From contig JADZFO010000010.1 in the NCBI GenBank assembly GCA_020849855.1, positions 1 through 64,000 of the forward strand: DNA of 64,000 bases. Reading direction: 5' to 3'. Origin of the DNA: a bacterium. GTDB lineage: Bacteria > 4484-113 > JAFGCY01. Position 1 is the first letter of the stretch; every line of letters begins with the position of its first letter. Below are positions 19,259 through 24,426 of this stretch, in pieces. Under the pieces are notes generated by a model. It ran no database searches, was not told the DNA's origin, and worked only from the letters and a program-made list of their open reading frames with translations. Position numbers and translations under genes: made by a program.

Positions 19259-19362
19259 ACTTTCTCCCCAGTGAAAGTGCCGCATTGCGCGGCCCCAGAG
19301 ATTAACACAGCCTTTTGCGCTCTGCCGCAGCCCCTGACATAAATGAGCCGCGGCGGCCGGGC

Positions 19363-19368
19363 TACAAT
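19363..19368 (+). promoter_or_regulatory. -10 element of selA (leaderless)
   Basis: TACAAT, exactly 6 nt before the GTG start at 19375. No ribosome binding site. Confidence 0.45.
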
Positions 19369-19374
19369 CAGCAG

Positions 19375-20847
19375 GTGAGCAAGCAAGTGAAGCAGTCCGA
19401 GTCCGGGGCCAGCAGCGAGCTTTTGCGGCGCCTGCCGCAGGTGGACAGCGTGCTGGCCTCGCCCAGACTTGCGCCGGCCCTTAGCAGCTACCGCCGGGAT
19501 GTGGTGCTGCGCCAGGTGCGGGCCGAGCTGCAGCAGATGCGGGAGAGCCTGCGCCGGGGCGCTGACCTGCTGGGTCCCGACGGGCCCAGCGAGGACTTCC
19601 TGCTGGAGGAGACAGCCCTGGCCGTGCTGGAGCGCCTGGCGCGGCTGGAGGGCTCCTGCCTGCGGCCGGTGGTGAACGGCAGCGGCGTGCTGATCCACAC
19701 CAACCTGGGCCGGGCCCTGCCTTGCGCCGCGGCGCAGGAGGCCCTGAGTTCTGCCGCCAGGGCTTACTGCAACCTGGAGATGGACCTGCACAGCGGCGAG
19801 CGGACCCGCCGCGATGTGACCCTCGAGCCCCTGCTGCAGGCCCTCAGCGGCGCCGAGGCCGCGACGGTGGTGAATAACAACGCCGCCGCGGTGCTGCTGG
19901 TGCTGCATGCCCTGGCCGGGCACAACGCCCCGGACCCGGCCCGGCGTGAGGTGATCGCCTCGCGGGGCGAGCTGGTGGAGATTGGCGGCTCCTACCGAGT
20001 GCCGGACATGCTGCGCTCCAGCGGCTGTGTGCTGGTCGAGGTCGGCACCACCAACCGCACCCGGATCAGCGACTATGAGAAGGCCATCACACCGGCCACG
20101 GCGATGCTGCTGAAGACGCACCCCAGCAACTACCGCATCCATGGCTTCACCGAGGAAGCCAGCCTGGAGCAGCTGGCGGCGCTGGGCCGCCGCAGCGGCA
20201 TCCCGGTCTACTTCGACATGGGCTCGGGCTATCTTGCCCCGGAGGGCCGCCACGCAGTGCGGCTGCCGGAGCCGGATATCCTGGGCGCCCTGGAGGCCGG
20301 GGCGGACATCGTCAGCTTCAGCGGCGACAAGCTGCTGGGCGGGCCGCAGGCCGGCATCGTGCTGGCCTCGAGCGCTTTGATCCGCCGTCTGCGCAGCGAC
20401 CCACTCTGGCGCTGCCTGCGCATCGACAAGTTCACGGCCAGCGCGCTGGCCGCGGTGCTGCTGGAGCAGATGCGGCGGCCCGAGCAGCGCTCCCCCGGCG
20501 GTCTGGCGGAGCAGCTCAGCGCGGACAATGCGGCTCTGCGCAGCCGGGCCGATGAGCTGGCGGCGCAGCTTGCCGCGGCCTGTCCCGGCTGGAGCTTTGC
20601 CGTGCTGGAAGCCGCAGGCAGTTATGGCGGCGGCAGCCTGCCCGAGGAGGAACTGCCCAGCTTCGCCGTCACGGTGCAGGCGCCGGGCCTGGAGGCCGGC
20701 GAGCTGGAGCAGCGTCTGCGGCGCGGCCAGCCGGCGGTGGCCGGCGGCTTTATCCGCGGCAGCTACTGCATCAACGTGCTGGCCCTGCTGCCCGGCGACG
20801 GCGAGCGAATCGCCGCCGCCTGCCAGGCGATTGCACAGCAAAGCTAA
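19375..20847 (+). CDS. selA: L-seryl-tRNA(Sec) selenium transferase
   Basis: 490 residues. Converts Ser-tRNA(Sec) to Sec-tRNA(Sec) with selenophosphate in a PLP-dependent reaction. VNGSGVLIHTNLGRA and the PLP-lysine motif SFSGDKLLGGPQAGI (Lys319) are diagnostic. The GTG at 19375 is preferred to the upstream open frame because of the -10 element 6 nt before it and because similarity begins soon after. selB follows after 30 nt. Together with selD this gives three of the four bacterial Sec genes; I could not find the tRNA(Sec) gene in the window. Confidence 0.95.
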   Translation: MSKQVKQSESGASSELLRRLPQVDSVLASPRLAPALSSYRRDVVLRQVRAELQQMRESLRRGADLLGPDGPSEDFLLEETALAVLERLARLEGSCLRPVVNGSGVLIHTNLGRALPCAAAQEALSSAARAYCNLEMDLHSGERTRRDVTLEPLLQALSGAEAATVVNNNAAAVLLVLHALAGHNAPDPARREVIASRGELVEIGGSYRVPDMLRSSGCVLVEVGTTNRTRISDYEKAITPATAMLLKTHPSNYRIHGFTEEASLEQLAALGRRSGIPVYFDMGSGYLAPEGRHAVRLPEPDILGALEAGADIVSFSGDKLLGGPQAGIVLASSALIRRLRSDPLWRCLRIDKFTASALAAVLLEQMRRPEQRSPGGLAEQLSADNAALRSRADELAAQLAAACPGWSFAVLEAAGSYGGGSLPEEELPSFAVTVQAPGLEAGELEQRLRRGQPAVAGGFIRGSYCINVLALLPGDGERIAAACQAIAQQS

Positions 20848-20864
20848 AGCTGCCTGTTCAGCGC

Positions 20865-20870
20865 TACACT
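20865..20870 (+). promoter_or_regulatory. -10-like element of selB
   Basis: TACACT, 7 nt before the ATG at 20878. It may allow selB to be expressed independently as a leaderless message, in addition to read-through from selA. Confidence 0.35.
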
Positions 20871-20877
20871 TAGCCGG

Positions 20878-22926
20878 ATGCAAGAGACTGCTCCTGAGCT
20901 TGCGCCCGGCTCTGCGCAGCCCGAAGCGCCGCGTTATGTGGTGCTGGGCACCGCGGGCCATATCGACCACGGCAAGACCAGCCTGGTGAAGGCACTGACC
21001 GGCGTGGACTGCGACCGCTTCGCTGAAGAGAAGCTGCGCGGCATTACCATTGACCTGGGCTTTGCGCACTGGCAGCTGCCGGCCAGCGAAGGCGAGGCCG
21101 CGCTGGAGCTGGCGATCATCGACGTGCCGGGGCACCGGCGCTTCATCCGCAACATGGTGGCCGGCGCGGTGGGCATCGACCTGCTGATGCTGGTCATCGC
21201 CGCCGACGACGGCGTGATGCCCCAGACCATCGAGCACCTGCAGATCGCCCGCATGCTGGGCATCGAGCGCGGCCTGATCGCCCTGAACAAGGCTGACCTG
21301 GTGGACAGCGACCTGCTGGAGCTGGCGGTGGCCGACGTGCAATCCCTGGTTCGCGGCACATTCCTTGAGGGCCAGCCGATCATCCCGGTCTCGGCCCTCA
21401 GCGGCCAGGGCCTGGCCGAGCTGGGCAGCGAGGTGCGGCGCATCGCCGCTTCGATTAAGCCGGCCCCGGCGGGCCAGCGCTTCCGCATGCCCATTGACCG
21501 CGCCTTCACCATCCGCGGCGCCGGCACGGTGGTGACCGGCACGGTGGCCAGCGGCACGGTGAAAGTGGACGATGAGCTGGTGCTGATGCCCGGCGGCCAG
21601 CGCTTCAAGAACGGCGGGGCAGTGCGGGTGCGGGCCATCCAGGCCCACGGCCAGCAGCAACAGTCGGTGGGCCCGCGGCGCCGCGCCGCCCTGAACCTGG
21701 TGGGCGTCGAGAAGGACGAGCTGCAGCGCGGCGATGTGCTCTGCACCCCGGACAGCCTGATCGCCACCAGCATCATTGACGCCCGTATTGAGCTACTGCC
21801 CGGTAACTGGCGGCCCCTGCACAGCGGCTCCTGGCTGATGCTGCATGTCGGCACGGCGGAGCTGGGGGCCAAGCTGGTGCCCCTGCAGCAGGAGCAGTTG
21901 CCCCCCGGCAGCAGCGCGCTGGTGCAGCTGCGCCTGGAGGAGGAAGTGGCGGTGGCCGCCGGCGACCGCTTCATCCTGCGCGGGGCCAGCGGCGACGAGA
22001 CAGTCGGCGGCGGCGTGGTGCTGGACGCGCACCCCACGGTCCACCGCCGGCGCCGCGAGGAGGCCGCCGAGCAGCTGGAGCGCCTGCAGAGCCTGGAGCT
22101 GGGCCCGGCCCTGCTGCATGAGGTGGGCAAGACTGCCTTTGGCATCGACCGCGCCTCGGCGGAGCGCCTGCTTTCCGCCGGGCCGGCCATGCTGGACCAG
22201 GCCCTGGAAGCGCTGCTCTACCGCGGCAGTGACGGCCTGCTGGTGCACAGCGAGGGCCGCCAGACCGTGCTGAGCCTGCCGGCCAACCGCCAGCGCATCC
22301 TGCAGGCCGCGGAGCGCGCCCTGACCACCTACCACCAGGCGCATGCCCTGAGCAACCGCGGCATGCTGCTCAGCGAGATCCTGCAGGCCCTCAGCTCTGA
22401 GGTGGCCGCGCAGAACCGCAGCGGGCAGCTGCACGTGCGCCTGCCGGCCGAGCTGCTGCGGGTCAGCCTGCAGGCCGGGCTGGAAGCCGGGCGTCTGCGG
22501 ATGGCCGGCGAGAGCTATGCCCTGAGCAGCCACCAGGCCAGCGCCAGCGACAAGGACCTGCGGGCGGCGGAGATGATCGTGCGCGAGCTGGAGGCCAGCA
22601 TGCAGCCCGACCAGCCCGAGGACTTCGCTGCCAGCCTGCCGGTGAAGAAGGACCGCCTAAAGCAGGTGCTGGACCTGCTGCTGGAGGAAGGCCGGGTGGT
22701 GCTGATCCCCCAGGGCCTGTTCATGGGCCGCGAGCGGACCGAGCGGGCCCGGGCCGCGCTGCTGTACTACCTGCAGGGCGCCGAGGGCCAGAGCGCCGGC
22801 GGCATTACGGTGAGCGTCTTCAACCAGCTTGTCGGCACGACGCGCAAGTTCGGCCTGCCCCTGCTGCAGTACTTCGAGGCCGAGGGCCTGCTGGTCCGCG
22901 ACGGCGACCTGCGGCGGCTGAAGTAA
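20878..22926 (+). CDS. selB: Selenocysteine-specific elongation factor
   Basis: 682 residues, somewhat longer than E. coli SelB (about 614). GTPase motifs are intact: GHIDHGKT at 27-34, DVPGH, NKAD. EF-Tu-like domains II and III follow (FRMPIDRAFTIRGAGTVVTGTV, then DRFILRGASGDETVGGG), and the C-terminal third is the chain of winged helices that reads the SECIS hairpin. Brings Sec-tRNA(Sec) to UGA codons; selD at 15162 is a visible client. Confidence 0.95.
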   Translation: MQETAPELAPGSAQPEAPRYVVLGTAGHIDHGKTSLVKALTGVDCDRFAEEKLRGITIDLGFAHWQLPASEGEAALELAIIDVPGHRRFIRNMVAGAVGIDLLMLVIAADDGVMPQTIEHLQIARMLGIERGLIALNKADLVDSDLLELAVADVQSLVRGTFLEGQPIIPVSALSGQGLAELGSEVRRIAASIKPAPAGQRFRMPIDRAFTIRGAGTVVTGTVASGTVKVDDELVLMPGGQRFKNGGAVRVRAIQAHGQQQQSVGPRRRAALNLVGVEKDELQRGDVLCTPDSLIATSIIDARIELLPGNWRPLHSGSWLMLHVGTAELGAKLVPLQQEQLPPGSSALVQLRLEEEVAVAAGDRFILRGASGDETVGGGVVLDAHPTVHRRRREEAAEQLERLQSLELGPALLHEVGKTAFGIDRASAERLLSAGPAMLDQALEALLYRGSDGLLVHSEGRQTVLSLPANRQRILQAAERALTTYHQAHALSNRGMLLSEILQALSSEVAAQNRSGQLHVRLPAELLRVSLQAGLEAGRLRMAGESYALSSHQASASDKDLRAAEMIVRELEASMQPDQPEDFAASLPVKKDRLKQVLDLLLEEGRVVLIPQGLFMGRERTERARAALLYYLQGAEGQSAGGITVSVFNQLVGTTRKFGLPLLQYFEAEGLLVRDGDLRRLK

Positions 22927-22980: not shown

Positions 22981-23757
22981 CTAGCGGTGCACTCTGCGCT
23001 TGCTGCTGCTGTTTCCGGGCCGCGCGAATTTAACCTTGGGCCCCTGTTTTGTGACTAGGGAAGCCGTTTTCACATTCGCCGTCGCAGCAGGATCCGGCGG
23101 CGTGAGGGGCGCAAGAAGCAGGGCCGGCGCGGCGGCCGGGCCAGCTGCGAGCGTGGCGGCGGGAGGCGCTTCGGCGAGGACAGGTGGCATAGCGAGCGCG
23201 GCGGTACCTTCCATGGCGTCCTCCGCCGGGCTGACAGCGGCGGCTGAGGCTTCAAGCTGCGCAAGCTCGGCGCAGTTTGCGCCGCTCAGCTCACGGCGCA
23301 GGCGCGCGGTCTGCAGGCGCTGCAGCTCAGCCTGCTCGCGGCGGGCATGCGCCTCAATGATCCGCGCGGTGGCGCCGGCGCTGCGCGCCTCGCATTCCAG
23401 GCGGTCCAGCTCGGGGTTGCGGATCCACATGGGCAGGCGGGCATAGGCGCGCATGGCATCGCTCAGGTCCCGCGTGCTGCCGCTGACCCGCGCTTCCTCT
23501 ACCTTTTCCGCCAGCATGCCCATAACCAGCTTCGAGACCCCTTCCAGCGGCAGCTCCCCGCCCCTGACCAGCAGTTCAAGCTGGGCCAGGTCGGACTCAA
23601 AGACCTGCCGCACGGACTCGACATCCACGTTCTTGATGCCGAGCAGGGCCAGCAGGGCGGAATCGAGGCGGCCGCTGAGGACGAGCTGCCAGAGCAGCAT
23701 GGCGGTGATGGGGCGCTGCAGGGCGTGGGCAGCGGAGGCAGAGAGAGCAGCAGACAT
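22981..23757 (-). CDS. Helical protein of unknown function with Ala/Pro tail
   Basis: 258 residues, not recognised. The first 150 are predominantly helical and charged (RLDSALLALLGIKNVDVESV, LDRLECEARSAGATARIIEA); about 165-235 is Ala/Pro-rich and probably disordered; the end is basic (KVKFARPG to SSSKRRVHR), suggesting nucleic acid contact. No signal peptide. AAGGAG lies 8 nt before the ATG. It has a near-consensus sigma70 promoter overlapped by a short palindrome, so it is probably strongly expressed and perhaps repressible. A DNA-binding or phage-derived small-terminase-like role is possible but unsupported. Confidence 0.65.
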   Translation of the reverse strand: MSAALSASAAHALQRPITAMLLWQLVLSGRLDSALLALLGIKNVDVESVRQVFESDLAQLELLVRGGELPLEGVSKLVMGMLAEKVEEARVSGSTRDLSDAMRAYARLPMWIRNPELDRLECEARSAGATARIIEAHARREQAELQRLQTARLRRELSGANCAELAQLEASAAAVSPAEDAMEGTAALAMPPVLAEAPPAATLAAGPAAAPALLLAPLTPPDPAATANVKTASLVTKQGPKVKFARPGNSSSKRRVHR

Positions 23758-24019: not shown

Positions 24020-24355
24020 TAAAAAGAAGCCCCGGAAGGTGACTCCCGGGGACTACCGGCTGAAATGTTAGGAGGTAAGCAATTTCTGGAAGCCTCACCG
24101 GCTTCAACCCTCGCACTTTCAAAACCCTTACCCAAGGCTCTGAAAGCGGCCCTCTCCAGGGCTGGCCCGCCGAGGCGGGGAATAAAAATGATTCCGAAGT
24201 TGGTTCAACATCCTGGGGGTCGGTCTACCCTTCCGGCAGTTCCACCCCAGCTTTCCACGAGGCTTTCCCGCCGGAGCTTTCCGGTAAGAGGCCCCGCCCC
24301 CAGGTGATGTTCAACCAACCTGCGAACTGGTGACGGCTACTAGATGCAGGGCAGG
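24020..24355 (-). ncRNA. Candidate structured non-coding RNA, unknown class
   Basis: About 335 nt without credible coding capacity. Read on the minus strand: a TAACAT -10 candidate at 24367-24362; a long rod whose arms (24319-24294 and 24223-24199) pair over about 23 bp with one G-G mismatch and a 2-nt bulge; hairpins at 24179-24166 (CCCGC/GCGGG), 24162-24149 (GCCCT/AGGGC), 24146-24116 (13 bp, two G-U pairs, one bulged G) and 24105-24089 (GAAGCC/GGCTTC); finally a Rho-independent terminator. The G-U pairs would be C-A mismatches on the plus strand, which favours the minus strand. I find no signature of RNase P RNA, tmRNA, SRP RNA or 6S RNA. Confidence 0.6.
24021..24051 (-). terminator. Rho-independent terminator of the structured RNA
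   Basis: On the minus strand CCCCGG/CCGGGG (24051-24046 with 24035-24030) forms a 6-bp GC stem with a 10-nt loop, followed by CTTCTTTTT. No minus-strand protein gene ends nearby, so it must terminate a non-coding transcript or a leader. Confidence 0.75.
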
Positions 24356-24426
24356 CGGGAGATGTTACAGGTCGACCGGGGAATTTGGAGATTTTCCTGC
24401 AAGCTCTCCCGCCAGCCGGAAGAAGG

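What the first reader, a model, noticed from the sequence alone, without database searches (positions are those of the whole stretch)
24020..24355. Structured non-coding RNA of unrecognised class on the minus strand
In a gene-free stretch between a hypothetical gene and an LptF/G gene I can draw six consecutive helices: a 23-bp rod (24199-24319), four hairpins (24166-24179, 24149-24162, 24116-24146, 24089-24105) and a Rho-independent terminator (24030-24051) with U-tract. The hairpin at 24116-24146 has 13 pairs, two of them G-U on the minus strand, which would be C-A on the plus strand. No minus-strand protein gene ends before the terminator. I find no hallmark of RNase P, tmRNA, SRP, 6S or common riboswitches.
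Basis: seen in the sequence. Interest (0 to 1): 0.72.

Follow-up and report, generated by a model that had tools for sequence, protein, structure and literature searches.

The report
ECF-sigma-driven small RNA, new family
This is the gene of a previously undescribed bacterial small RNA, conserved in three related genomes of a poorly known phylum and sharing its promoter with a stress-type (ECF) sigma factor gene, so it is probably the RNA arm of a stress response; neither its transcript nor its targets have been tested.

Summary
The minus strand at about 24334->24021 carries a strongly folding RNA (z -4.0; middle part alone -4.3) that ends in an intrinsic terminator. No Rfam family matches it. 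tmRNA and RNase P lie elsewhere in the genome, as does a probable 6S RNA (below its cut-off).

Homologues exist in two of three other genomes of the same family, at loci with different neighbours. Conserved are the two ends: 5' CG(A/U)CACCAGUU(U/C)GC, and 3' UUACCUCCUA..AUUUCAGCCGGUAGUC plus the terminator, which keeps all pairs with two double-sided changes. Between the ends each genome has its own folded middle of 75-243 nt.

Just upstream lies a two-box promoter, GTAACAT-N17-TCTAGTAGCCG. In four genomes the five best matches (<=1 mismatch) are three ECF sigma genes and two of these RNAs. The G003 sigma site, and the G001 sigma site at 2 mismatches, were not used to define the pattern.

Best reading: an ECF-sigma-dependent trans-acting sRNA, the noncoding arm of an autoregulated sigma/anti-sigma module, pairing with mRNAs through its conserved ends (anti-Shine-Dalgarno-like ACCUCCU). 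Hfq was not found in the four genomes. The promoter assignment is well supported by sequence; target pairing is inferred.

The parts
24334..24369 (-). Two-box ECF-type promoter: -35 TGTAACAT (24369-24362), 17-nt spacer (24361-24345), -10 TCTAGTAGCCG (24344-24334)
   Evidence: Same boxes and spacing in G001 and G003 RNA loci and before orthologous ECF sigma genes in four genomes
24021..24334 (-). Small RNA, about 314 nt; start inferred to within a few bases from the promoter, end from the U tract
   Evidence: no transcript data
24322..24332 (-). Conserved 5' block CACCAGUUCGC (candidate seed)
   Evidence: RNA-against-RNA identity 0.90 over the 13 nt after the promoter, against 0.22 for RNA against sigma genes (alignment)
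24199..24319 (-). Long imperfect rod, specific to this genome
   Evidence: MFE fold; middle region z -4.3; other genomes have different folded middles
24089..24179 (-).
24051..24078 (-). Conserved 3' block UUACCUCCUAACAUUUCAGCCGGUAGUC with anti-Shine-Dalgarno-like ACCUCCU; UUACC can pair with GGUAG
   Evidence: Alignment; the 27-nt pattern matches G001 and G003 exactly
24021..24051 (-). Intrinsic terminator: 9-bp stem 24051-24030 and U tract
   Evidence: (all pairs kept, two changed on both sides)

Best explanation
The locus encodes a free-standing small RNA transcribed from an ECF-sigma promoter by the sigma factor of an autoregulated sigma/anti-sigma operon (G000:C9 in this genome). When the anti-sigma lets the sigma go, presumably on envelope or similar stress, the sigma transcribes its own operon and this RNA. 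The RNA then base-pairs with target mRNAs through its conserved ends, most likely masking ribosome-binding sites with the ACCUCCU motif and selecting targets with the 5' CACCAGUU block. It is the noncoding arm of the response, as RybB/MicA and FoxI/FoxJ are elsewhere. The variable folded middle probably serves as a stabilising spacer in genomes where Hfq was not found. Shown by sequence: conservation, promoter shared with the sigma genes, terminator, no shared peptide. Inferred: expression, inducing signal, pairing mode, targets, role of the middle.
For: Homologues in G001 and G003 with different neighbouring genes. Terminator helix retained with two double-sided changes. TGTAACAT-N17-TC at the same place in all three RNAs. 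Orthologous ECF sigma genes, each followed by a gene for a candidate single-pass anti-sigma, carry the same promoter in all four genomes. All five sites with <=1 mismatch in four genomes are sigma genes or this RNA; the G003 sigma site and the G001 sigma site (2 mismatches) were not used to define the pattern. The same pattern with a spacer one base longer gave no site at <=1 mismatch. RNA loci and sigma genes agree in the boxes (identity 0.81 and 0.69) but not in the spacer (0.36) or downstream (0.22), whereas RNAs agree with each other downstream (0.90). tmRNA and RNase P are elsewhere in the genome, and a probable 6S too.
Against: Only three sequences, so covariation is not statistically strong (97 of 500 shuffles reach it). 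The G001 RNA promoter has a weak -10 (4 mismatches). At <=3 mismatches the promoter pattern is no more frequent than its reversed control, so only the best sites carry weight. Predicted accessibility of the conserved ends is only moderate: mean unpaired 0.41-0.53 for the 5' block and 0.37-0.51 for UUACCUCCUA. G002 has the sigma module but no detectable RNA; its assembly is 87% complete. No target was identified.
Confidence: 0.65

Rival explanations
1. The RNA is ECF-driven but works by binding a protein (for example as a sponge for a CsrA-like regulator), not by pairing with mRNAs.
For: Stable rods in all three genomes; no Hfq found; predicted accessibility of the conserved ends is only moderate.
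Against: GGA motifs are at chance level: 9 against 8.8 expected, 8 against 6.3, 4 against 3.8. The conserved parts are the ends, not the rod. Whether CsrA is present was not tested.
Confidence: 0.12
2. The RNA is transcribed by the housekeeping sigma-70, with TAACAT as its -10 box, and the resemblance to the sigma-gene promoter is coincidental.
For: TAACAT serves plausibly as a -10 before a tRNA-Lys gene in G001, with TTGACG 17 nt upstream (L065).
Against: No conserved -35 at 16-18 nt upstream of TAACAT in the three RNAs (sequence); no sigma-70-type promoter found by the scan there; the second box TCTAGTAGCCG and the constant unconserved spacer would be unexplained.
Confidence: 0.1
3. It is a cis-acting leader (riboswitch or attenuator) or the 3' end of a neighbouring mRNA.
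For: In G001 an ECF sigma gene begins about 50 nt after the terminator; in G001 and G003 a same-strand gene lies upstream.
Against: The downstream genes differ: an unknown gene about 265 nt away, an ECF sigma gene, and none within 1 kb on that strand in G003. In the window the upstream gene lptF is divergent. The RNA has its own promoter.
Confidence: 0.06

Closest known systems
FoxI and FoxJ, sigma-E-dependent sRNAs of Fusobacterium nucleatum (PMC11005410)
   Same: sRNA sharing -10 and -35 boxes with the ECF sigma gene's own promoter; C-rich seed; FoxJ seed in a hairpin loop; works in an organism without Hfq; FoxJ about 156 nt, like the G003 homologue (154 nt)
   Different: No sequence relation shown; different phylum; a large variable folded middle in two of three members; targets (FomA porin there) not established here
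RybB and MicA (enterobacteria), VrrA and MicV (Vibrio), sigma-E-dependent sRNAs (PMC1804206, PMC11005410)
   Same: ECF-sigma promoter, Rho-independent terminator, conserved 5' end as likely seed
   Different: Those use Hfq (general knowledge); here Hfq was not found; no match to their Rfam families
sRNAs with anti-Shine-Dalgarno motifs, such as alphaproteobacterial 'cuckoo' RNAs (search hit PMC10746234 on NfeR1, not read in full; details from memory)
   Same: Conserved CCUCC-type motif expected to mask ribosome-binding sites
   Different: Here the motif occurs once, next to the terminator; promoter is of ECF type; no sequence relation shown

Membership tests
Any Rfam family (release 15) | Covariance-model score at or above the gathering threshold | tested here: not met
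   0 matches in the window; best sub-threshold Spot 42, 19.1 bits against 80
tmRNA, RNase P RNA, 6S RNA | Match to the family model (and no other copy in the genome) | tested here: not met
   No match here. tmRNA at G000:C60 and RNase P at G000:C27, both over the cut-off; 6S candidate at G000:C45, 35.4 bits, below the 46.4 cut-off but over it in relatives
ECF-sigma-dependent sRNA (functional class) | Promoter shared with the ECF sigma gene | tested here: met
   G001 RNA promoter weaker
ECF-sigma-dependent sRNA (functional class) | Free-standing non-coding unit with intrinsic terminator | tested here: met
   Terminator conserved; short ORFs in the three RNAs share no peptide (by inspection); neighbours differ. 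No transcript data
ECF-sigma-dependent sRNA (functional class) | RNA level rises when the sigma is active | not testable with these tools
   Needs RNA from a cultivable host
ECF-sigma-dependent sRNA (functional class) | Regulates envelope mRNAs by base pairing | not tested
   No genome-wide target search was made
Hfq-dependent sRNA | Hfq encoded in the genome | tested here: not met
   PF17209 not found in four genomes of 84-94% completeness; found in 5 of 14 control genomes
Riboswitch or leader RNA | Conserved downstream gene | tested here: not met
CsrA-sponge RNA | Excess of GGA motifs | tested here: not met
   GGA count at chance level in all three RNAs; loop positions not examined separately

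The most novel reading that the evidence does not exclude
A dedicated ECF sigma/anti-sigma module whose main output besides itself is one RNA, in genomes without Hfq: a fast-evolving folded middle replaces the chaperone, and the 3' GGUAGUC can pair either with the 5' GACACC end or with UUACC, so that a conformational switch exposes either the 5' seed or the anti-Shine-Dalgarno motif.
Probability: 0.15. Interest if true: 0.72.

Novelty: new member of a known kind. Interest (0 to 1): 0.5.

Why it matters
ECF-sigma-driven sRNAs are documented in Proteobacteria and Fusobacteriota. An unrelated RNA wired to an ECF factor in an uncultured phylum, apparently without Hfq, would suggest that a noncoding arm of ECF stress responses has arisen more than once. 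Here the sigma factor, candidate anti-sigma, promoter rule and RNA are all named, so the link is directly testable. The family also shows an unusual pattern of evolution: fixed ends around an interchangeable folded middle.

Tried and rejected
A genome-wide exact pattern for the 3' block in 84,980 species genomes gave the two relatives and one chance match inside a reverse-transcriptase-like coding gene of a Collierbacteria MAG (L009), rejected because it lies in a coding gene and lacks the terminator. A covariance model of the 3' domain over all 10 held genomes of the phylum gave, beyond the three, only weak hits (E 4e-4 and worse) that on inspection are generic terminators or other chance matches (two at contig ends could not be inspected). 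A 15-nt match in G007 (L034) lacks CCUCC and the terminator. The first promoter pattern had a spacer one base too long by my mistake; it is kept as a control. The FG-GAP genes next to the RNA in G001 and G003 are only weakly alike (26%), so synteny was not used as evidence. A closing stem GACACC/GGUAGUC fits G001 and G003 but has a U-U mismatch in G000, so it is not claimed. The whole-length MAFFT alignment of the three RNAs misaligns the variable middle and was not used for pair counting.

Full report
Observation. Folding is better than in all dinucleotide shuffles (z -3.99 for the inferred transcript; z -4.3 for the middle without terminator and conserved ends). The plus strand folds too (z -2.96), so the strand is fixed by the terminator, the promoter and conservation, not by energy. 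No Rfam family matches. tmRNA and RNase P of this genome lie elsewhere. A 6S candidate lies elsewhere as well; it is below the family cut-off here but above it in relatives.

Relatives. A 401-nt query found the 3' part in two of three other genomes of the same family, G001 (contig JAFGCY010000113.1) and G003 (JAHEFU010000042.1). Reading those loci gave whole homologues. The surrounding genes differ. In the window an lptF gene diverges from the RNA (Pfam LptF_LptG). In G001 and G003 an FG-GAP-repeat protein gene precedes it on the same strand. Downstream are an unknown gene, an ECF sigma gene and no close gene respectively. This argues against a conserved cis-regulatory target. The rest of the phylum (10 genomes held) and viral contigs gave nothing credible.

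Anatomy. From 5' to 3': a block G(A/U)CACCAGUU(U/C)GC; a folded middle of 243, 166 or 75 nt in G000, G001 and G003 with no evident sequence relation; UUACCUCCUA(n)AUUUCAGCCGGUAGUC; and a 9-bp terminator stem with U tract. The 27-nt 3' pattern matches G001 and G003 exactly and G000 with one insertion. All 27 terminator-stem cells are paired, with two pairs changed on both sides and two on one side. With three sequences this is supportive, not significant (97 of 500 shuffles reach it). The three middles each fold better than shuffles, z -4.3, -5.9 and -2.2.

Promoter. Immediately upstream, the three loci align without gaps from TGTAACAT to GTT(T/C)GC. TGTAACAT is followed after exactly 17 nt by TC. 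This is the layout of ECF-sigma promoters (AAC in the -35 box, TC in the -10 box; from general knowledge). Upstream regions of ECF sigma genes in the four genomes were then inspected, and two of them (G000:C9, G002:C32) carry the same arrangement, GTAACRTT-N16-TCTRKTARGCG. A pattern built from these two and from RNA loci was searched in all four genomes. The five sites with at most one mismatch were three sigma genes (G000:C9, G002:C32, G003:C61) and two RNAs (G000:C10, G003:C264). The G003:C61 site had not been used to build the pattern, nor had the G001:C15 sigma site, found with two mismatches. In all four genomes the sigma gene is the same orthologue, followed by a gene for a protein with one likely membrane segment, a candidate anti-sigma factor (membrane segment judged by eye). 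The same pattern with the spacer one base longer gave no site with at most one mismatch. At up to 3 mismatches the pattern is no more frequent than its reversed control, so only the best sites carry weight.

Box by box, RNA loci and sigma genes agree in the -35 (0.81) and -10 (0.69) boxes but not in the spacer (0.36) or downstream (0.22), whereas RNAs agree with each other downstream (0.90). The transcription start is therefore placed at about 24334. The G001 RNA promoter is the weakest (4 mismatches).

Mechanism. The most economical account is an ECF-sigma-dependent trans-acting sRNA. The sigma/anti-sigma operon appears autoregulated. In this genome only the sigma gene and the RNA match the promoter with at most two mismatches, so the RNA may be a major output. 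ACCUCCU is complementary to a full Shine-Dalgarno sequence, and a conserved 5' end such as CACCAGUU is where sigma-E sRNAs like RybB carry their seed (general knowledge). Hfq was not found in the four genomes although controls were positive. Fusobacterium, whose FoxI and FoxJ are sigma-E-dependent sRNAs with C-rich seeds (FoxJ's in a hairpin loop), also lacks Hfq (PMC11005410). The pairing mode, the signal and the targets are inference. Most ORF starts listed in the window lack a strong AGGAGG (starts there were chosen mechanically and include spurious ORFs), which if real would make the CCUCC motif selective.

Rivals. A protein-binding RNA remains possible, but GGA motifs are not enriched. 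A leader RNA is contradicted by the differing downstream genes. A sigma-70 promoter with TAACAT as -10 (as at tRNA-Lys in G001) lacks a conserved -35 and leaves the second box unexplained.

Verdict. A genuine, apparently new sRNA family with a well-supported candidate regulator; its kind (ECF-dependent sRNA) is known. Transcription and function remain to be tested.

Noticed in passing
L004:1763-2305 (G001:C36) and G000:C8:22064-22570: A second ECF sigma subgroup: the member next to the RNA in G001 has CGTTACAT-N17-TC upstream, and its homologue in G000 has TGTAACAT-N17-TC; it might also recognise the RNA promoter.
   Followed up: partly
L160 / G002:C109 about 120000 (-): A large lipoprotein-like gene (1109 aa ORF) in G002 has a close variant of the same promoter (TGTAACATTTTCTACGCTGGTTCAATCTAGTTAAGCG); possible protein member of the regulon.
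   Followed up: partly
window 24205-24319 (-): Three GGAAAG motifs (0.35 expected by shuffling) in this genome's RNA, within the rod, absent from the relatives' RNAs.
   Followed up: no
window 19315-22926 (+): Two ORFs that look like selA and selB (selenocysteine insertion) side by side, judged from the translated sequence only; ARAGORN found no tRNA gene in the window.
   Followed up: no
window 22981-23757 (-): Gene of 258 aa without Pfam match, with a good sigma-70-like promoter (TTGACA-N17-TATAGT) at 23821-23793.
   Followed up: no
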